From NCBI GenBank assembly GCA_021323535.1, contig JAJONO010000043.1, forward strand, positions 1 to 41,515: 41,515 bases of DNA, given 5' to 3'. The DNA comes from Bacteroidota bacterium. Its GTDB lineage: Bacteria; Bacteroidota; Bacteroidia; B-17B0; Aurantibacillaceae. Shown one piece after another: positions 2-8,925 of this stretch; the stretch's first letter is position 1, and every line of letters starts with the position of its first letter. Both the position numbers and the translations under genes were made by a program. The notes below the pieces were generated by a model that searched no databases, had not been told where the DNA came from, and saw only the letters and a program-made list of their open reading frames with translations.

Positions 2-864
2 TTAGTTGTCTTCTTCCTTTTGTCCTCATGTTCGCATGAAGCGCCAAAAGAAGAGAAGGCAGAACTTACAACAAAAAAGAAAATAGGTCTTCTGCTCGTC
101 AACCATGGATCACGTTCAGGAACATGGCGAAAAGCCCTGATGGATCTTGAGACAAACGTAAAAGATTCTATTCTTGCACAGGGAAAAATCGCCGGAACAA
201 AAACGGCGCACATGGAATACACAGAGCCATCCATTGCATCACGGCTCAAAGAATTCGACAGCGAAGGTTATACTGATATCATTGTTGTTCCGGTGTTCTT
301 AACTGTGAGTCCGCACTCCTTCGATGATATCCCAACTATTATCGGGCAAAAAGAAGATCCTCAATCGATGGAACTTCTTAAGCTGGAAAAAATAGAACGT
401 TATACTCCAAAAGCGAAAACGTACATCACTCCAACGTTGGACTTCACTGCTATTCTTCAGAAAAATATTCTTCGTCGTTACCAGGATATTTCTAAAGACG
501 CAAAGAAAGAAGGAATCGTTCTAATGGCTTATGGTGATGAAACGTATACCAAAGAATGGTCGGAACTTCTTACCAAAGTTGGAAATTATGTTGGAGCAAT
601 CCCGATTCAACAACGGTTGCCATTAAGCGCGTACTCAAGAAAAAAGATAACGCAGTTGTAATTCCTGTATTAGTAGCGCACGACGAAATGTTCCAGGTGA
701 AGATCATTGGCGACGGTATTGCTAAAATAAACAACTCCAAAGAAAAAGTAATTTATAAACCGGACGCCATTTTACCAGATAAAAATGTTGAAGGCTGGGT
801 GTTTGACATTGCCAACGAGTATGCCGGAAAAATTTTATCTGAACTGGAACTTGCGAATAAATAA
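2..864 (+). pseudogene. CbiX/CbiK-like sirohydrochlorin/tetrapyrrole metal chelatase lipoprotein, 5' partial and frameshifted
   Basis: The frame is already open at base 2 and reads through a hydrophobic stretch into a lipobox (LSSC, Cys codon 29-31), so the start lies upstream of the window and the product is probably an envelope lipoprotein. Family hallmarks are GLLLVNHGSRSGTW near the N-terminus (metal-binding His of class II chelatases), VVPVFLTVSPHSFDDIP, and near the C-terminus [13 protein letters not shown] and YKPDAILPD. These two halves are in different frames: frame 2 is family-like up to VGNYV (578-592), and frame 1 becomes family-like at [13 protein letters not shown] (from 598). 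From memory of the family, about 15-20 residues that usually carry a second Gly-His motif are missing at the join, so a small deletion plus frameshift is more likely than a single-base error. The next gene starts 2 bp after the stop. Known relatives insert or remove metal from tetrapyrroles; an envelope-located version fits the HmuY/TonB operon. Sequencing or assembly error is possible. Confidence 0.8.
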
Positions 865-866
865 GA

Positions 867-1436
867 ATGAACCTTTCAATAAAGAAGATAAGAAGATTTA
901 ATATTGCCACGCACCGCGACCTTGGTTACTTTTTTTCGACTTTGATTATTGTTTATTGTTTGTCGGGGATTGCTCTCAACCATGTTGATGAGTGGAACCC
1001 CGACTTTGTTATTACCAAAAAGACAATTGAAGTAAAGGAAAATTTTGTAGCGAAAGATCTTAAACCCACTGATATTTTATTGCTCAGTAAAAAAGTAGAT
1101 GAAACTAAATATAAGGTATTCGACTGCCCAACGAAGGACCAGGTAAAAATTTATTATGATAACGCGTCGCTTCACATCAACTTCACCACACATGAAGGAA
1201 CTTATGAGAAGGTGAGCCGCCGTCCACTTTTTTATCAGGTAAATGTTCTTCACCGCAATAGTTTAAAGGGATGGAAATGGGCCTCCGATGTTTTTGCGTT
1301 TATGCTCATAGTCATTAACATAACGGGATTATTTATTCTGAAAGGAAAACACGGTATTGGCAGAAGAGGTAAGTGGTTAATTCTCGCTGGCTTTATGCCA
1401 CCGTTGATAGCAATAATTATTCAGGCAACAATTTAA
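867..1436 (+). CDS. PepSY-associated TM helix family membrane protein
   Basis: The 189-aa protein has a charged N-terminus, a first membrane helix at about residues 21-40 preceded by HRDLGYF, an external domain of about 100 residues, and two C-terminal helices at about 140-160 and 168-188. The layout (HRDLG before helix 1, LHRNSLKGWKWASD before helix 2) matches small PepSY_TM-type proteins of Bacteroidota, which are common beside TonB receptors for siderophores or heme. The histidines flanking the membrane (His17, the ALNH His, the LHRN His) could bind heme or metal, as proposed for larger PepSY reductases; that is inference. It starts 2 bp after the chelatase stop and ends 1 bp before the next ATG, so it is translationally coupled. 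A role in ferric or heme reduction, or in energising uptake, is plausible but not shown. Confidence 0.75.
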   Translation: MNLSIKKIRRFNIATHRDLGYFFSTLIIVYCLSGIALNHVDEWNPDFVITKKTIEVKENFVAKDLKPTDILLLSKKVDETKYKVFDCPTKDQVKIYYDNASLHINFTTHEGTYEKVSRRPLFYQVNVLHRNSLKGWKWASDVFAFMLIVINITGLFILKGKHGIGRRGKWLILAGFMPPLIAIIIQATI

Positions 1437-1437
1437 T

Positions 1438-1770
1438 ATGTGTTCATATAATACATTGCATTTAAATGAAGATGGTTACGTGATCAGCTGTAATGGTTGC
1501 AATCACCTTCAACTCGCATTCGGAACAACGGTTCTCATTTTAACACGGAATGAATTCAGTGAGTTCTGCGAAATGGTTGAGGATAGAAAAAACCTTTGGG
1601 ACAGCGATGGTTTCCCAATGTCCAAATGCATTTACATACCCACTAAGAATAAAGATGTGGCGCTTGTTTTTAGTTACAAAGAATTACTGAAGCTGCATCA
1701 TATTCTTGTCAGTGCGGGCTTAATTTTAGAAACTGAAGAAATACTTTCGAATGGTGGTCTTCTCAACTAA
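1438..1770 (+). CDS. Small conserved cytoplasmic protein with CNGC motif (DUF6686-like)
   Basis: The 110-aa protein has no signal peptide or membrane segment. Near the N-terminus it has ISCNGCNHLQLAFGT, a CxxC pair followed by a conserved-looking QLAFGT strand; further Cys residues are Cys2, the SEFCEM Cys and the MSKCIYIP Cys. It resembles a Bacteroidota family of about 110 residues often placed next to TonB receptors; I think this is DUF6686 but cannot confirm the number. It lies 1 bp after the PepSY gene and overlaps the receptor start by 20 bp, so all are probably made from one mRNA. The CxxC suggests metal or Fe-S sensing or trafficking, but no function is known to me. Confidence 0.7.
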   Translation: MCSYNTLHLNEDGYVISCNGCNHLQLAFGTTVLILTRNEFSEFCEMVEDRKNLWDSDGFPMSKCIYIPTKNKDVALVFSYKELLKLHHILVSAGLILETEEILSNGGLLN

Positions 1771-3817
1771 AATAATCCCCACTGTTTTTTTGTTTCTTTT
1801 AGCTGCAGATTTGATATCACAGACTAAAAAGGATTCTGTTAAAACCAACGCCCTGGATGAAGTAGTTGTAACCGCGCAATACCAGCCGGTAACGCACGAT
1901 CAATCTGCTTTTAAAATTAAAGTCATTGGCGAAGAAAAGATTCAGTCGCTCGCCGCAGTGAGTTTAAAAGACGCTTTGAATAATGAATTGAATATCCGAT
2001 TCTCACAGGATCCTGTACTTGGAAGCAGTATGAGTTTACAAGGATTGTCGGGACAAAATGTAAAAATTCTTATTGACGGAGTTGCCATGATAGGAAGGCA
2101 GAACGGAAACATTGATCTCTCGCAGATAAACGTGAATAACATTGAGCGCATTGAAATTGTTGAGGGGCCATTATCTGTTACATATGGAACAAACGCTCTG
2201 GCCGGTGTAATCAATATCATTACAAAAAAGCCGAAAACGTTGTCGGCCGGAGTGTATACGTATTATGAAACGAACAATAATTATAATACGGGTTTAAATT
2301 TTTCAATGAAGAAAAATAAACATGGGTTTTCAATGAACCTAAACCGGAATTATTTCAATGGCTGGAACATGAACGATAAATATTATTTTCTTCCTGTAAA
2401 AACTCTGGCTGATACCAACCGTTTCAAAAACTGGAAACCAAAAGAACAATATTTTGGCGACGTGCAATACGAATTCAAAAAGGAGAAATTCAGTCTCAAT
2501 TACCGCGCCTCTTATTTTGAAGAACTGATCGTTAACCGTGGATACCCTTTAAAACCTTATTACGAATCGGCTTTCGACGATTACTATAAAACAAAACGGT
2601 TTGATAATACCGTTACGGCCGCGATGAAGTTTAATAACTTCAAATTCTTTAATGCTACTTTGGCTTATAATTATTTTCGCCGCGATAAAAGTACGTATTA
2701 CAAAAACCTGACCGATCTCAGCGAACAACTTTCTCCCGATAATTCTTTACAGGATACAGCTGTTTTTAACCAGGTCATGGCAAGAGGATCGTTCGTAAGC
2801 AGTAAAGCTTTTGAAACCTGGGACGACACAATTCGTAGCTTCAATTATTTTAACTACGAAATAGGTTACGATTTAAATTATAATTCCGCCACCGGGAAAA
2901 GAATAGAAAATAAAACTCAGACCATTGGCGATTATGCTCTGTTTACAACAGCAGAAATTCTTCCGGTAAAAAATTTCATTATCAGGCCGGGTTTACGTTA
3001 CGCGTATAATACAGCTTACACATCGCCGTTGATTCCTTCTTTGAATATAAAATACAATACAAGAAAATGGACCTTCAGGACTTCTTACGCAAAAGGATTC
3101 CGTGCTCCTGACTTAAAAGAATTGTATTTCGAATTTGTTGACATCAATCATAATATTCTTGGTAATACAGGATTAAAAGCCGAGACTTCCGATAATTATA
3201 ATCTGAACATAAAGTATAGCGAGCGAAGAACAGAACAATCTAAAATTACACTCGACGTTTCAGGGTTCTATAACTCAATAAATAATCTTATTACGCTGGC
3301 TTTAGTAAATGGTACAAAGTATTCGTATATAAACATTGGAACATTTAAATCGTATGGATCTTCACTCAATGCTTCTTACAATTATGATGATTTTTCTATG
3401 TCAGCCGGGGCATCCATGATTGCACGTTACAATGAACTAAGCGAAACTTCAAATGGAGTAGATGAATTTTCATATACGCCTGAAGCAAGAGCTTCTGTTC
3501 AGTATAAACTAAAAAAATGGAACACCTCTTTTAACTGTTTCTATAAATATACAGGAAGATTACCGGGATATAACCAGACGAGTGATGGCTCAATTTATCA
3601 GACTGAAGTGGAAGATTTTCATATGCTCGACGCGAACGTTTCTCAACAGCTTTTTAAAAATAAACTTGTTATAAGTTGCGGGGCTAAGAATATTATGAAT
3701 GTAAATAATGTCCGGTCGTCTCTGGCTGGTGGTGTTCACAGTGGAAACTCATCGTCAACAGCAATTGCTATGGGACGCACGTACTTTATAAAACTCCAAT
3801 ATGTATTTGAAAAGTAA
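1751..3817 (+). CDS. TonB-dependent outer-membrane receptor (HmuR-like, heme/metal uptake)
   Basis: The 688-aa protein has a signal peptide (about residues 1-24, ending ADLISQ). A TonB-box-like segment LDEVVVTAQYQPV is followed by a plug domain (about 50-165) with SLKDALNNELNIRF, QGLSGQNVKILIDGV, INNIERIEIVEGPLS-type sequence and YGTNALAGVINIITKK. The rest is a beta barrel ending in an aromatic C-terminus (YFIKLQYVFEK). TonB receptors take up scarce iron complexes, heme or cobalamins across the outer membrane. The following HmuY-like gene and the preceding chelatase-like gene point to heme or another metal tetrapyrrole as substrate; this is from context. The ATG at 1751 overlaps the upstream gene by 20 bp, and the 3' end overlaps the next gene by 17 bp, consistent with coupled translation. 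Confidence 0.93.
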   Translation: MVVFSTKIIPTVFLFLLAADLISQTKKDSVKTNALDEVVVTAQYQPVTHDQSAFKIKVIGEEKIQSLAAVSLKDALNNELNIRFSQDPVLGSSMSLQGLSGQNVKILIDGVAMIGRQNGNIDLSQINVNNIERIEIVEGPLSVTYGTNALAGVINIITKKPKTLSAGVYTYYETNNNYNTGLNFSMKKNKHGFSMNLNRNYFNGWNMNDKYYFLPVKTLADTNRFKNWKPKEQYFGDVQYEFKKEKFSLNYRASYFEELIVNRGYPLKPYYESAFDDYYKTKRFDNTVTAAMKFNNFKFFNATLAYNYFRRDKSTYYKNLTDLSEQLSPDNSLQDTAVFNQVMARGSFVSSKAFETWDDTIRSFNYFNYEIGYDLNYNSATGKRIENKTQTIGDYALFTTAEILPVKNFIIRPGLRYAYNTAYTSPLIPSLNIKYNTRKWTFRTSYAKGFRAPDLKELYFEFVDINHNILGNTGLKAETSDNYNLNIKYSERRTEQSKITLDVSGFYNSINNLITLALVNGTKYSYINIGTFKSYGSSLNASYNYDDFSMSAGASMIARYNELSETSNGVDEFSYTPEARASVQYKLKKWNTSFNCFYKYTGRLPGYNQTSDGSIYQTEVEDFHMLDANVSQQLFKNKLVISCGAKNIMNVNNVRSSLAGGVHSGNSSSTAIAMGRTYFIKLQYVFEK

Positions 3818-4775
3818 AATTATTTTTGGAGTTTGTCTTCTTATTTTGGTTTCGTGCAGGAAGCCAGAGATTCCAGTGCAACCACTTAACAGGGGAGATG
3901 TACTCACTTCGTCGGTGGACATGGGCCCGGATTATAAACATCAATTGTTCTATTCACTCTCTCAGGATAAGATCATATCCTCTAATTTTAAAACCGAGTG
4001 GGATCTTGCATTCGAATGTGGAAGTAATGGCTTTCATGTAAAACTGAATTCATCAAAACTCATGTGCGCGTTCAATACGGGTGTGACTGATTTTTCACTG
4101 GTAACAGATACTGCAGGTTTTACTCCAGGAAAAAAATTTGATTACCCAACAGGCCACAAGGACAGCACCGCCTTTGGAAACTGGCAAACAAATACTCCTG
4201 TTTACATTGTAGACAGAGGGTATAACTCCGCCGGAACACACCTGGGATTTCGTAAACTGCAGATTATGTCTGTTAATGGAAATGAGTATTCTGTCAGAAC
4301 ATCAAACATCAATGGAAGTAACGAGGTAAATGTTGTTTTACAAAAAAGTAATTCTGAAAACTTTACTTATTTTTCCTTCGATTCAAATTTCACGATCAAT
4401 ATCGATCCGGGTAAAGAAGAATTTGATTTGATCTTTACGCAATACACGCACTTGTATTTTAATCCTTTTGAATCTTATCTTGTAACGGGGGTTTTATCCA
4501 ATCCCAATAAAGTAAAAATTGCTCCTGTGTCTGATAAATTATTCAATGACATAACAATTGCAGATACAACAACGCATCCTTTTAAAGGTTTTGAAAACGT
4601 GATTGGCTTCAACTGGAAAACATATAGCTTTCAGACTTCCTCTTATGAAATAGACACTAAAATGAATTACATCATCAAAGATGTAAAAGGCTTTTGTTAC
4701 AAATTGCATTTCATTGATTTCTATAATTCTTCCGGAATTAAAGGTTGCCCTAAGTTTGAGTTTAAGAAGTTGTAG
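3801..4775 (+). CDS. HmuY-family heme-binding-type lipoprotein
   Basis: The 324-aa protein begins with a lipoprotein signal peptide (lipobox LVSC, Cys19). HmuY-type features are EWDLAFECGSNGFHVKLN at about 65-85, FDLIFTQYTHLYF in the middle, and the typical end YIIKDVKGFCYKLHFIDFYN then GCPKFEFKKL. HmuY of Porphyromonas is a surface lipoprotein that captures heme and passes it to its TonB receptor HmuR. This protein is longer than HmuY (about 215 aa), with the extra length between the two conserved parts. It is last in the operon and overlaps the receptor gene by 17 bp. The heme ligands cannot be assigned from sequence alone, so heme as the actual ligand is inferred. Confidence 0.85.
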   Translation: MYLKSKIIFGVCLLILVSCRKPEIPVQPLNRGDVLTSSVDMGPDYKHQLFYSLSQDKIISSNFKTEWDLAFECGSNGFHVKLNSSKLMCAFNTGVTDFSLVTDTAGFTPGKKFDYPTGHKDSTAFGNWQTNTPVYIVDRGYNSAGTHLGFRKLQIMSVNGNEYSVRTSNINGSNEVNVVLQKSNSENFTYFSFDSNFTINIDPGKEEFDLIFTQYTHLYFNPFESYLVTGVLSNPNKVKIAPVSDKLFNDITIADTTTHPFKGFENVIGFNWKTYSFQTSSYEIDTKMNYIIKDVKGFCYKLHFIDFYNSSGIKGCPKFEFKKL

Positions 4776-4786
4776 CAACTGCACTT

Positions 4787-4880
4787 TTAACCACAAAGGT
4801 TCCAAAGTAAAATCACAAAGGTTCCTAAGCATTTCTTCTTTGTGCCACTTTGTGAGACCTTAGTGGCACTTTGTGGTTAA
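4787..4880. repeat. CACAAAG-type dispersed intergenic repeat with 12-bp inverted ends
   Basis: TTAACCACAAAG at 4787-4798 is repeated perfectly inverted at 4869-4880, with further CACAAAG/CTTTGTG units between. The same 12-mer occurs again at 13737-13748 in another gene gap. It is non-coding, and the arms could form a long imperfect hairpin. It lies just upstream of the terminator between two convergent genes. Confidence 0.75.
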
Positions 4881-4892
4881 ATGGTAGGAAAT

Positions 4893-4927
4893 AAAAAAGC
4901 CCTCCATTTCTGAAGGGCTCTTTATTT
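4893..4927. terminator. Bidirectional intrinsic terminator between convergent genes
   Basis: AGCCCT (4898-4903) pairs with AGGGCT (4914-4919) around a 10-nt loop. An A-run precedes it (4893-4898) and a T-rich tract follows (4921-4926), so it has a U-tail in both directions. It lies between the end of the HmuY-like gene (+) and the end of the 1328-aa T9SS gene (-). Confidence 0.8.
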
Positions 4928-4938
4928 TAATATGAATA

Positions 4939-7900
4939 TTATTGTTTGATCAGTTTACCTTGTTTGTATGCCTGGTTATTCTCAACAGATGAAATTTTGT
5001 AAGTATACATTCCATTGGCAAGTTCTCTGATGTTGATGGTGTTCTCAGGTTTGTTAAGTGTTGCACTGTAAACCTGTTTGCCCGCTACATCAAATACTTC
5101 AAAAATGTATTTTCCATTATCTGTCGTAACAGTTATTAATCCGTAGTTAGGATTTGGATACACTTTCATGAAACTACCATCAATATTATTTTCGTTGAAA
5201 CCAATACCACTCATTTCAATACTTGTAGTGGCCGTAGTCACACAACCAAAGTTATTTGTTCCGGTTACAGTATAAATTGTTGTTACCACAGGCGATACAA
5301 GAATGCTGTTGTTGTTTGATCCGCCCGGATTCCACGAATATGAGTTAGCTCCGCTCACGGTTAAAGTTACAACCGATCCCGGTGGTACAAATACAGTTGG
5401 AGAAACGTTAAGTGTAGGACTAGGATTTACTCCTAGCGTTGTTGTAGCGATTCCGTTACAAGCTCCGTCTTCTCCGTATACAGTATAAGTTGTTGCAACC
5501 GATGGGCTAACAATTACCGCCGAACCGGTTAAAGTGCCCGGGCTCCAGGTATAGTTAACCGCGCCACCCGCTGTAAGCGTTGCTGTTTTTCCTGAACAGA
5601 TAGCTGTATTGCTATTTACTGCTGTTACAGTAGCTCCCGCTGCAACCGAGAAGGTTACCGGGGTCATGGTACTTGTACAACCTTGTTTTGTATAGAATAA
5701 CGCGCCGTTAAAAATACGCGGCGAGTTTATCACTCCGAAATACGTGCCACCCTTTCCTTCATACAATGAAAGATCGCCGTTAGAAGTGTAGAGGTTGCTT
5801 AATCCCGTTCCGTTAGTATAGTTGGTTATAGGATTTCCGTTTACTGAAGTAATATACAGACCGTAAGTTTGTCCAGCCGGTACATTAATGGCAAATGTTC
5901 CTGGTATCGGTGTCATTGTACCTGTACCGTTTGTTACAACAGTGGTAGTGTGTGCCATTGTCCATCCGGTGTTTGCAGATTCGAAACCAACAAAACTTCC
6001 CGGGCGATACCATACTTCAACAGTAGTGGTAACACCCGCCATTCCGAAATGCATGTTACAGCTTTGAATTGTAATGTTGGCTGTAGGAGCAATGTCGAAC
6101 ATGTTTCCTGAAGAACCATTACCAGCGGCAAGCGTTGTAAATAAACTTCCTGTTGAAGTTGAACTTGCCTGAGCATAATAGGTTGTTGTTGTTGCTGAGC
6201 TTACCGTGAATGTATTTCCGGTTGCGAGCGAAGTAGTTGAAGTCGGGCTCGCATACCAGTTAATGATAGAAGGAGTAAATCCATTGGCAGTTAAAGTAGC
6301 TGTTGCAGGATTACCACACGCTGCTGCGTTTGTTGCAGTAATGGTTGGGTCCTGAACAGAAACAGTGAACGCTCCTGATGCAGTACATGATGCCGCACTT
6401 CCAATTACACTATACACGGTGTTTGTTGTTGGCGAAATCACAAGAGAACTTGTTTGTGCGCCTGTACTCCATGTGTAACTTGTAGATGTTCCGTTAATGG
6501 TGAGTGTTGCTGTGTTTCCTAAACAAACTGCCGATGGTCCGCTTACGTTCACGATCGGATTCACCGTAAATGTAGAAACGTTTTGGTCGTTATTATTGTT
6601 ACCGTCACCAACAAGTGTTGTACTTGAAGAGAATGTATAAGCTCCACCTGCACTCATGTTGGCGTTACCAACAGTAAATGTGGCAGAAGCGCCAACTGCT
6701 AAAGGACCAGGATAAGTTCCGGTGATAGTTTGGTTGGTAGGACCAGTGATAACAACAGTTACAGGAATATTAGAGAGCGATCCAAGGCCGTAGTTGGTAA
6801 TGGATACGGCCACGGGCTGACTTGCACTGTAACATCCGCTGGTGCTTGGCGAAATAACTGTAGCAACTCCACCGTCAATTGCAGTGAGGTTATAAAGGTT
6901 GATGTTATCAATATCAATGAAGTAATCTGCTGTTGTGTTTGATTGTTGTCTTACCGCAAGGAATTTGATTATTACATCATTTCCTGCAAGAGCGCTGAGA
7001 GGATAAGATTTGTTAGTGAAAGCTGTTGTAGCTATTGAATGGTTAGCAACAGTAATTAATCCTACAGTTGACCAGGTTGTGCCGCAATCAATAGAAGCTT
7101 TTACATATAACGAGTCGCCGTCAATGTCAATTGTTGGTGTTGCTGTAGAAGGATAGCCGCTCCAATTCACATAACGGTAATCAAAGCTGATAGAAGTGCT
7201 TGCCGTAACCGGACCAAGACGTAACATGTCTGTTGCTGCCTTATCGAAAGTACTAAACAGATTTCTTGTCATACCATTACTGTTCGATGTCCCGTGATTG
7301 TTCATGACATAGAACGGATCAACAGGATCCACTGTCCAGCCCGTAGGCATAGCAGTTGACGCGTTGAAGTTTTGTGTATAGGGTAATGGAGTTGTTGCAA
7401 TAACTGTTCTTGTTACAAGAGGAACTAAAGTGTCGTTTCCTAAAGCTCCATCAGAAGGGAAAGTACTGAATGCTTTGAAAGAATAAGTTCCTGCCGCGCT
7501 CATGTTCAGATTACCAACTGTAAAGTTAGTGGTTGCAGTTGTAGCAAGAGTGGAAGTATAAGTGCCGGTTAAAGTCTGGTTAACAGCGCCGCTTACAACA
7601 ACAGTAATAGGAATGTTGCTGATGGTGTTGCTTCCGAAGTTTTTAATGGTTACAGTTACAGGTGTTGAAACACTGTAACACGGTTGTCCTGCTGGAGGAC
7701 TAACCAACGCGTTTACACCGGCGTCGTTTGCAACTAAGTTAAAGATGTTAATGTTGTCCACGTCGATATAATAATCGCCGGTTCCCATCGGATCTTTTTT
7801 TCCAACAAATTTAAAGACCATGTTGCTTCCTGTGTATGGAGCAAGTGAGAATGATTTATTAAAGAAGTTGGTTGTTACAACGTGATTACCTGCGTTAACA

Positions 7901-8925
7901 GAACCAAGCAAAGTATAAGTGGCGCCACAGTTGGTTGAAATGTAAACGTTCATTGAATCGTTGGCAAAATCAACAAGAGGTGTAGCGGTAGAAGGATAAC
8001 CGCTCCAGTTAACGATGCGGTAATCAAAGCTAATGGCTGTGCTTGCTGTAGCAGGGCCAACCTGAACCGTAGTTACTTCTTCATAAATACTAAACGTTGA
8101 GAAAAGATTGCCTGACATACCGTTTGTTCCCCCGGTGCCATGATTGGAAATCACATACCATGGAAAGTTAGGATTATCGATCCAGCCTAAAGGCGTAGTT
8201 AAAGACGAGTTAAAATCTTCAAGCAATGGCATGGCTCCTGTACTGATTACATTTAATAAAGCGGTTGTGGTTGTTAAACTCGCCACTGTATTTGAAATGA
8301 CACATTGGTACAGGTATCCGTTCATTGCGCCGGTAATACCCGTTAATTGTAATGTTGGAGTGAATACACCACTGTAAATACCTCCGTTAACAAGCGGTAC
8401 AAAACCGAAGCCCTGATCCTCCTGCCATTGATAAGTACAGTTAGTTGGAGTGGCGCCGCATATAAACTGTGCATTCGATCCGGCACATCCTCCTGTGTTA
8501 ACGGGTTGTGTAATAATTGTTGGAGAGCCCGGAGGCGCACTTATAGTGTAGGAAGTTGTGCGGCAGTTAAAATCCGACAAACAGGTCGGCGGGCCAGAGG
8601 CAAATATGTGTAATTCGTAATTACCTCCTGTTGGCAGGTTATAAAGTAACGGAGTTGGTCCGGACGCGAATACGGTTACTCCGCCAACGTCTGTCAGCGT
8701 AAGATAATCCGTTGCCACGTCAGAAGCAAACGTGTAACTTCCTGTTACGTTAAGGGTTAAATTACTGAACTCGTCACCAAAATTACAGGTAGTGATGGTG
8801 TAATCGCCCGGTGCACTTGCAGTTGAAGAACCGAACTGATTAATAGAGATACATTGTGCCTGTGTTTGAATATGAAATGCAAACAAACAACTTAGCACCA
8901 CAAAAATCTTGTAAAGTTTAGTCAT
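4939..8925 (-). CDS. Large secreted multidomain adhesin-like protein with T9SS type A sorting domain
   Basis: The 1328-aa protein has a signal peptide (about 1-23, ending QTQAQ). An N-terminal region of about 110 residues is followed by an Ig-like domain at about 137-228 (QPVNTGGCAGSNAQFIC, ending LYQCVIS). Then come two tandem copies of a module of about 280 residues (about 232-510 and 513-795). Each has a jelly-roll-like part (FNSSLTTPLGW / FNASTAMPTGW, SFDYRIVNWSGYPSTATP / SFDYRYVNWSGYPSTATP, YYIDVDNINIFNL / YFIDIDNINLYNL) and a CARDB-like strand domain (VTIKNFGSNTISNIPITVVV / VSITNYGLGSLSNIPVTVVI). More PKD/Ig-like repeats follow, and the C-terminal sorting domain starts at VYPNPNYG (about 1255). 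Such proteins are exported by T9SS and anchored at the surface or released. It is probably an adhesin or carrier; no catalytic domain is visible. Confidence 0.9.
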   Translation of the reverse strand: MTKLYKIFVVLSCLFAFHIQTQAQCISINQFGSSTASAPGDYTITTCNFGDEFSNLTLNVTGSYTFASDVATDYLTLTDVGGVTVFASGPTPLLYNLPTGGNYELHIFASGPPTCLSDFNCRTTSYTISAPPGSPTIITQPVNTGGCAGSNAQFICGATPTNCTYQWQEDQGFGFVPLVNGGIYSGVFTPTLQLTGITGAMNGYLYQCVISNTVASLTTTTALLNVISTGAMPLLEDFNSSLTTPLGWIDNPNFPWYVISNHGTGGTNGMSGNLFSTFSIYEEVTTVQVGPATASTAISFDYRIVNWSGYPSTATPLVDFANDSMNVYISTNCGATYTLLGSVNAGNHVVTTNFFNKSFSLAPYTGSNMVFKFVGKKDPMGTGDYYIDVDNINIFNLVANDAGVNALVSPPAGQPCYSVSTPVTVTIKNFGSNTISNIPITVVVSGAVNQTLTGTYTSTLATTATTNFTVGNLNMSAAGTYSFKAFSTFPSDGALGNDTLVPLVTRTVIATTPLPYTQNFNASTAMPTGWTVDPVDPFYVMNNHGTSNSNGMTRNLFSTFDKAATDMLRLGPVTASTSISFDYRYVNWSGYPSTATPTIDIDGDSLYVKASIDCGTTWSTVGLITVANHSIATTAFTNKSYPLSALAGNDVIIKFLAVRQQSNTTADYFIDIDNINLYNLTAIDGGVATVISPSTSGCYSASQPVAVSITNYGLGSLSNIPVTVVITGPTNQTITGTYPGPLAVGASATFTVGNANMSAGGAYTFSSSTTLVGDGNNNNDQNVSTFTVNPIVNVSGPSAVCLGNTATLTINGTSTSYTWSTGAQTSSLVISPTTNTVYSVIGSAASCTASGAFTVSVQDPTITATNAAACGNPATATLTANGFTPSIINWYASPTSTTSLATGNTFTVSSATTTTYYAQASSTSTGSLFTTLAAGNGSSGNMFDIAPTANITIQSCNMHFGMAGVTTTVEVWYRPGSFVGFESANTGWTMAHTTTVVTNGTGTMTPIPGTFAINVPAGQTYGLYITSVNGNPITNYTNGTGLSNLYTSNGDLSLYEGKGGTYFGVINSPRIFNGALFYTKQGCTSTMTPVTFSVAAGATVTAVNSNTAICSGKTATLTAGGAVNYTWSPGTLTGSAVIVSPSVATTYTVYGEDGACNGIATTTLGVNPSPTLNVSPTVFVPPGSVVTLTVSGANSYSWNPGGSNNNSILVSPVVTTIYTVTGTNNFGCVTTATTSIEMSGIGFNENNIDGSFMKVYPNPNYGLITVTTDNGKYIFEVFDVAGKQVYSATLNKPENTINIRELANGMYTYKISSVENNQAYKQGKLIKQ

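What the first reader, a model, noticed from the sequence alone, without database searches (positions are those of the whole stretch)
2..4775. HmuY/TonB receptor operon that includes an envelope CbiX-like chelatase lipoprotein
Seen: five genes with gaps of 2, 1, -20 and -17 bp; the chelatase carries a lipobox, placing it in the envelope rather than the cytosol. Known: chelatase relatives can insert or remove metals from tetrapyrroles, and HmuY/HmuR bind and import heme. Inference: metal removal or exchange outside the cytoplasm coupled to uptake of a tetrapyrrole, with the small CNGC protein as possible cytosolic partner.
Basis: partly seen in the sequence, partly recalled or inferred. Interest (0 to 1): 0.5.

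Follow-up and report, generated by a model that had tools for sequence, protein, structure and literature searches.

The report
Envelope chelatase with its electron partner
A heme-uptake gene cluster of Bacteroidota carries a chelatase anchored in the cell envelope together with a membrane protein likely to feed it electrons, which suggests that iron is pulled out of heme before it reaches the cell's interior; in this particular genome assembly the chelatase gene is broken.

Summary
The operon is real: five genes with gaps of 2, 1, -20 and -17. Two corrections. The window starts at a contig edge; relatives carry an extra first gene, a secreted (T9SS-sorted) HmuY-like protein, whose start lies at the end of contig C89 of the same genome. 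The chelatase is not an intact frame here: about 55 nt are missing after base 595, shifting the frame and removing an invariant W-C-G-H stretch; recent mutation or assembly error.

Linkage recurs. HmuY genes lie within 7 kb of 35 of 80 relatives, in five arrangements; all 12 chelatase-bearing genomes of 198 in the class carry HmuY. The strongest link is to a PepSY membrane protein: 75 of 80. A diverged chelatase branch has instead a flavin/iron-sulfur membrane protein: 21 of 21 chelatase genomes among 395 carry one or the other. The pair also occurs without HmuY and in other phyla.

Best reading: an envelope class II chelatase that removes iron from heme, with a dedicated electron donor. Envelope heme chelatases (FetB/IhtB, HmuS) are known; the redox pairing appears new. 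No activity was measured.

The parts
2..595 (+). CbiX-type (class II) chelatase lipoprotein, N-terminal lobe with lipobox LLSSC and the conserved His/Glu/His triad; 5' end cut by the contig edge; reading frame runs on to 661
   Evidence: PF01903 47.4 bits (cut-off 22); alignments; family model hit 2-595
596..864 (+). C-terminal part of the same chelatase gene, in another frame (ORF 556-864) after a 55-nt gap relative to intact relatives
   Evidence: family model hit 586-843; DNA alignment; pN/pS
867..1436 (+). PepSY_TM_like_2 protein (three long helices, presumed membrane-spanning; conserved His16, His39, His129): likely inner-membrane electron donor of the chelatase
   Evidence: PF16357 54.3 bits (cut-off 27); His conserved in 75-76 of 76; near 75 of 80 chelatase genes; helices
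1438..1770 (+). DUF6686 protein (C18-x2-C21, 9 of 9); belongs to HmuY operons in general, not specifically to the chelatase
   Evidence: PF20391 42.3 bits (cut-off 23.9)
1751..3817 (+). TonB-dependent outer-membrane receptor, HmuR-like by position
   Evidence: PF00593, PF07715; best NCBIfam model is the heme receptor TIGR01785, but below its cut-off
3801..4775 (+). HmuY-family lipoprotein (lipobox ending at Cys19)
   Evidence: PF14064 70.5 bits (cut-off 27); Cys19 in 34 of 34
4889..4927 (.). hairpin between the operon and the convergent gene, possibly a shared terminator
   Evidence: inverted repeat; fold

Best explanation
The operon takes up heme and strips it of iron in the cell envelope. 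Steps: a secreted HmuY-like protein (gene beyond the contig edge) and the HmuY lipoprotein catch heme; the TonB receptor brings it into the periplasm; the CbiX-type lipoprotein, a two-lobed class II chelatase, binds the tetrapyrrole; the PepSY membrane protein passes electrons from the inner membrane to reduce Fe(III) to Fe(II), which the chelatase can release; Fe(II) enters through FeoB. Shown: genes, order, recurrent linkage, conserved active-site residues, predicted chelatase fold, and that the PepSY gene is replaced by a flavin/iron-sulfur membrane protein in the B branch. Inferred: heme as substrate, removal as direction, electron flow, periplasmic side. In this genome the chelatase is broken as assembled; the claim concerns the family.
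For: Linkage: PepSY near 75 of 80 chelatase genes, an HmuY-like gene within 7 kb in 35 of 80 (26 of the 51 loci with at least 5 kb on both sides), in five arrangements counted by me (20, 4, 6, 3, 2). 12 of 12 chelatase genomes carry HmuY against 65 of 198 overall (hypergeometric 7.5e-7, not corrected for kinship), 10 of 12 within 7 kb. Partner swap: among 395 class genomes, 14 of 14 A-type chelatases have PepSY and 7 of 7 B-type have the flavin/iron-sulfur protein (Pfam FMN_bind and Fer4_5 shown for 3, motifs for 7). 12 of the 14 A-type genomes share a contig length with one of the 80 loci, so they repeat that evidence; the B-type loci are new. Four of the five loci without PepSY have no signal peptide by eye and form one clade; the fifth (L086) is cut by a contig end. 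H51, E88, H121 invariant in 80 A and 7 B. Model pLDDT 89; Z 19.7 to SirB (rmsd 3.2 over 240), 16.8 to periplasmic CbiK (3.3 over 235), 16.0 to P. gingivalis FetB (3.5 over 229). HmuS, reported with direct evidence as a heme de-chelatase, sits in the classical hmu operon and depends on NADH (PMC12583661, passages); CobN/HmuS is absent from this genome. FeoB present.
Against: No biochemistry. 25 of 51 well-flanked loci have no HmuY nearby, so the pair is not bound to heme uptake. The HmuY lipoproteins (34 sequences of 290-360 aa) keep no His at 80% or more, only Met88 (33 of 34), so heme ligation as in P. gingivalis HmuY is not shown. The PepSY model found no credible solved relative and has three conserved His, not the four of FoxB. 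Biosynthetic CbiX enzymes insert metal (recalled). The window copy is broken.
Confidence: 0.5

Rival explanations
1. Metal insertion or exchange: the lipoprotein puts another metal (Mn, Zn, Co) into an imported or stripped porphyrin; the membrane protein reduces the metal or helps to remove the iron.
For: FetB of P. gingivalis, which has the same fold (Z 16.0), is reported to make Mn-protoporphyrin IX (review PMC13402209, passages; the original paper was not held). The nearest NCBIfam models are sirohydrochlorin insertion enzymes.
Against: Two kinds of electron-transfer partner fit iron reduction better than insertion of divalent metals; the genome has its own ferrochelatase.
Confidence: 0.2
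2. The pair is a general envelope reductase and chelatase for another metal-ligand complex (cobalt or nickel tetrapyrrole, copper chelate); HmuY operons are one of several uses.
For: 25 of 51 well-flanked loci lack HmuY; pair present in loci titled Nitrospira, Chlorobiota, Verrucomicrobiota and others, in Nitrospira with TonB receptors and a second secreted CbiX-like protein. A PepSY_TM protein of Bordetella is tied to copper (PMC13038864, passages).
Against: All 12 chelatase genomes of the 198-genome class sample have HmuY.
Confidence: 0.2
3. The lipoprotein is a non-catalytic heme carrier that hands heme from HmuY to an importer.
For: Chelatase-fold proteins can bind heme (recalled); no activity is known for this family.
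Against: Complete H/E/H triad in 87 of 87; a paired electron-transfer protein is not needed for a carrier.
Confidence: 0.1

Closest known systems
IhtB/FetB of Porphyromonas gingivalis (lipoprotein, CbiK-like)
   Same: Class II chelatase fold (9b86, Z 16.0), lipoprotein, encoded with a TonB receptor; thought to take iron out of heme (PMC10913741, passages)
   Different: Homologous to CbiK rather than CbiX; described with IhtA, C, D and E; no PepSY partner or HmuY in that system in the passages seen
HmuS of Bacteroides and Porphyromonas (hmuYRSTUV)
   Same: De-chelatase in a HmuY operon, membrane-bound, needs reductant (PMC12583661, passages)
   Different: CobN-like class I fold of about 1470 aa; no PF02514 match in this genome, 1 of 198 class genomes has one
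SirB, CbiX and CfbA (sirohydrochlorin chelatases)
   Same: Nearest fold (SirB Z 19.7) and nearest sequence (CfbA E 1e-11), same two His positions in the alignment
   Different: Cytosolic biosynthetic insertion enzymes without lipobox or membrane partner (recalled)
Periplasmic CbiK of Desulfovibrio vulgaris
   Same: Periplasmic class II chelatase, Z 16.8
   Different: CbiK family; I recall no HmuY or PepSY context
PepSY_TM reductases such as FoxB; the xenosiderophore locus BT2063-BT2065
   Same: PepSY membrane protein beside a TonB receptor (PMC10434189, passages); FoxB reduces bound iron in the periplasm (PMC13038864, passages)
   Different: Siderophore substrates; FoxB has two PepSY domains and two hemes each held by two His

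Membership tests
CbiX (PF01903) | Pfam score above cut-off | tested here: met
   Window 47.4 bits, relative L007 45.8, cut-off 22; 54 of 54 members of A4 match at E up to 1
Class II tetrapyrrole chelatase | Two-lobed fold with His/Glu/His metal site | tested here: met
   Predicted fold; H51, E88, H121 in 80 A and 7 B; the ligand roles are recalled
Class II tetrapyrrole chelatase | Metal insertion or removal activity | not testable with these tools
   No assay
CbiK family (to which IhtB/FetB is likened) | PF06180 score above cut-off 26.2 | tested here: not met
   13.0 bits for L011, 19.7 for L121; 28 of 54 members match at E up to 1, best 1.7e-4, bits not shown; the fold is similar
HmuS (CobN-like) | PF02514 in the genome | tested here: not met
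   0 in G000
HmuY family | PF14064 above cut-off | tested here: met
   70.5 bits, cut-off 27
HmuY family | Heme-ligating His pair of P. gingivalis HmuY | tested here: not met
   No His conserved at 80% in 34 sequences; Met88 33 of 34; Tannerella Tfo uses Met (PMC9331221, passages), so this pair does not define the whole family
PepSY_TM reductase | PF16357 above cut-off | tested here: met
   54.3 bits, cut-off 27; PF03929 26.8, below its 28.8
PepSY_TM reductase | Two His on each membrane face holding heme | tested here: inconclusive
   Three conserved His (16, 39, 129); no credible solved match

The most novel reading that the evidence does not exclude
A previously unnamed two-gene envelope enzyme found in several phyla: a class II chelatase exported to the envelope and bound to a dedicated transmembrane electron donor (PepSY, cytochrome-like, in one branch; flavin/iron-sulfur in the other), which demetallates tetrapyrroles reductively. 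In Bacteroidota it is plugged into HmuY operons, where other genomes carry DUF6607 or HmuS instead.
Probability: 0.4. Interest if true: 0.75.

Novelty: new variant of a known kind. Interest (0 to 1): 0.57.

Why it matters
[quoted passage not shown] A gene system in which a second, unrelated chelatase sits next to one of two kinds of transmembrane electron-transfer protein makes that question directly testable, and gives candidate genes in many environmental Bacteroidota and in other phyla.

Tried and rejected
Fur site: no match to the E. coli Fur consensus (up to 3 mismatches) in the 11 kb at the end of contig C89, which holds the region before the operon (L100); this says little about Bacteroidota. 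PepSY fold: Foldseek best E 0.08, VIA-align best Z 5.8, nothing credible; FoxB not listed; the sequence search of solved structures gave only E 0.09 and 0.34.

Exclusion between the CbiX chelatase and DUF6607: 12 and 12 genomes of 198, none with both, but given 65 HmuY genomes the chance of no overlap is 0.085, so exclusion is suggestive only. No DUF6607 in any of the 80 chelatase loci.

DUF6686 as the chelatase's particular partner: rejected, as told above. A single recruitment of the chelatase to HmuY operons: not supported. Over the 61 rows of known state (20 rows with short flanks left out) the HmuY label needs 15 changes on the tree; in the table that counts all 81 rows it needs 18, of which well-supported branches force 5 (quick tree, 36 of 78 inner branches weak).

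The gene strings printed drop some PepSY genes (L039, L071, L079, L085) through my overlap filter; one search is the count I use. L086 lacks PepSY because the contig ends. In the phylum sample one further partial match (G473, L145) shows no PepSY in its 2 kb. In some searches the first look scored at most five candidates per genome, so genomes may have been missed.

The samples overlap. By equal contig length, 7 of the 12 chelatase genomes of the 198-genome sample and 12 of the 14 A-type genomes of the 395-genome sample are also among the 80 loci (my comparison), and the 12 are all among the 21. The samples were drawn without regard to the chelatase, so co-occurrence with HmuY is a fair test, but the counts must not be added.

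Papers: the FetB paper PMC13065792 is not held, so FetB activity is quoted from a review. Searches of the open-licence library for PepSY + chelatase (0 papers), DUF6607 (0), HmuY + flavinyl (1, where the word stands in a reference), PepSY + HmuY (2, read in passages), HmuY/sirohydrochlorin (15 of 52 listed) and CbiX/heme/PepSY (20 of 30 listed) showed no description of this pair. One of them, PMC12106395, marks genes for T9SS-sorted and PepSY-domain proteins in its figure of Porphyromonas hmu loci (legend only), so PepSY near HmuY has been drawn before. Subscription journals were not searched.
Full report
What is in the window. Window base 1 is the first base of contig C101, so the signal peptide of the first gene is cut. 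The first gene is two frames, 2-661 and 556-864. DNA alignment with four intact relatives shows one gap of 55 nt after window base 595. The lost stretch holds W226, C227, H229 and Y233 (numbering of the relative L011), each invariant in 80 of 80 relatives. Both sides of the break look equally constrained. The break is either recent or an assembly error close to a contig end; I cannot tell which. No second CbiX gene was found in the genome.

The whole operon. Of 60 genomes searched, the own one included, 5 have the gene: the own genome and G015, G021, G033, G038. In these four the order is T9SS-sorted HmuY-like protein (415-418 aa), chelatase, PepSY, TonB receptor, HmuY. The sorting domain PF18962 is in 4 of 4 of the first proteins; the HmuY model matches over its cut-off in 2, below it in 1 and is not listed for 1. 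In the window's genome the first 130 residues of that first gene (82% identity) lie at the very end of contig C89. Hence the operon has six genes or more and is split between two contigs; that the two contigs join here is inferred from the relatives.

Recurrence. A scan of one genome per species found 175 relatives, of which the best 80 were kept; it favours near relatives of the query. PepSY lies within 7 kb in 75 of 80 (starting within 30 nt of the chelatase's end in 74 of these), a TonB receptor in 41, an HmuY-like gene in 35; among the 51 loci with 5 kb or more on each side the numbers are 49, 29 and 26. The 35 HmuY loci fall into five arrangements (my count): secreted HmuY first and all genes in line, 20; HmuY and receptor convergent with the pair, 4 (in L015 the receptor is beyond the contig end); receptor and HmuY upstream, 6 (in L035 only part of HmuY is on the contig); receptor and HmuY downstream without the secreted HmuY, 3; divergent, 2. 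Association kept through different arrangements is better evidence than inherited synteny.

A class sample not chosen by the chelatase: 198 genomes, the own one included, 12 with the chelatase, 65 with HmuY, all 12 with both, 10 of 12 within 7 kb; G177 and G195 have them on different contigs. CobN/HmuS occurs in 1 of 198. DUF6607 occurs in 12 of 198, 11 of them with HmuY nearby on the same contig, and in L101, L102, L104, L105, L109 and L114 it lies between the secreted HmuY and the receptor, where the chelatase and PepSY lie here. Other HmuY operons have nothing in that place (L103, L106, L107, L108, L110, L116, L118).

The partner. In three class genomes the chelatase belongs to a diverged B branch whose next gene is not PepSY but a protein of about 460 aa with FMN_bind and Fer4_5 domains, nearest to NosR, NapH and RnfG models though far below their cut-offs. 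In a larger class sample of 395 genomes, 21 have the chelatase: 14 A-type, all with PepSY (13, the own genome), and 7 B-type, all with a match to a model of the flavin/iron-sulfur protein. Twelve of the 14 A-type genomes repeat loci of the scan; the seven B-type loci do not, as the model matches nothing in the 80. The SGAT flavin-attachment motif (role recalled) is in 7 of 7 and both Cys motifs in 6 of 7. In two B genomes (L167, L169) no HmuY lies in the 10.5 kb seen, as with many A pairs. A survey of flavin-linked electron transfer treats PF16357 PepSY-like and NapH-like proteins as two kinds of transmembrane electron-transfer system and does not contain the word chelatase (PMC8238504, passages). 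The swap is the main reason why I read PepSY as an electron donor. The four loci whose chelatase has no signal peptide by eye (L077, L081, L084, L090; my simple Cys rule counted L084 as positive for a Cys far upstream) all lack PepSY and form one clade with support 99, as expected if the partner serves only the exported form. In a phylum sample 10 of 395 genomes matched, and each has PepSY next to a chelatase.

The chelatase. The model of L011 (54 sequences, mean pLDDT 89) has two lobes of alternating strands and helices. Foldseek and VIA-align put SirB first; VIA-align then lists periplasmic CbiK, ferrochelatases and P. gingivalis FetB. The alignment with CfbA pairs H51 and H121 with two His of that enzyme (that these bind metal is recalled). 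H51, E88, H121, C227 and H229 are invariant in 80 A and 7 B members. A Cys after a hydrophobic stretch near the N-terminus is found in 64 of 80 by a simple rule that errs in at least two rows (L025 missed, L084 wrongly counted); 7 of the 10 Nitrospira forms have a signal-like N-terminus without it. A periplasmic rather than surface location is therefore the common denominator, by inference.

Limits. The HmuY lipoproteins here keep no heme-binding His pair. 25 of the 51 well-flanked loci have no HmuY. Names of non-Bacteroidota loci come from record titles of metagenome bins; the ten Nitrospira rows form one starred clade, which argues against chance contamination. The genome has ferrochelatase and FeoB, so it could do the last step of heme synthesis and could import released Fe(II).

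Verdict. The finding is a real, recurrent gene system whose broad idea, an envelope chelatase acting on heme, is already proposed for IhtB/FetB and shown for HmuS. New here, as far as the searches reach, are the CbiX-type lipoprotein in HmuY operons and its pairing with one of two transmembrane electron-transfer proteins.

Noticed in passing
L101:4752-5714, L102, L104, L105, L109, L114 (between secreted HmuY and receptor): DUF6607, a family of unknown function with no paper in the library, stands in HmuY operons where the chelatase-PepSY pair stands here; 11 of 12 DUF6607 genomes of the 198-genome sample have HmuY close by. It may be another heme-processing protein.
   Followed up: partly
Nitrospira loci L038, L060-L063, L068-L070: A second, longer secreted CbiX-like protein (about 500-660 aa) lies near the chelatase-PepSY pair in 8 of 10 Nitrospira loci; three of the eight matches are weak, E 5e-4 to 9e-6.
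   Followed up: partly
L100:9783-10406; cluster c5: A regulator with a LuxR-like end (by eye here; Pfam for the L046 member) lies just before the operon in this genome and directly before the cluster in 6 of 80 loci (L011, L013, L016, L018, L046, L066), elsewhere in L042.
   Followed up: no
L074 and L088 (titled Chlorobiota); unnamed L131, L133-L137, L139-L144: Chelatase, PepSY and a second chelatase in a row, in several cases beside a TonB receptor.
   Followed up: no
L101:5731-6462 and L122:5207-5815: Hemerythrin-like genes inside two HmuY operons, scores at about the Pfam cut-off of 25.3.
   Followed up: no
window 4786-4881: Two copies of CTTTGTGCCACTTTGTG (one with 2 mismatches) within a long inverted repeat after the operon; perhaps a dispersed palindromic element, not searched in the genome.
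   Followed up: no
window 4939-8925, - strand: Convergent gene for a 1328-aa protein with repeated stretches and a C-terminal tail like those of secreted T9SS proteins (by eye).
   Followed up: no
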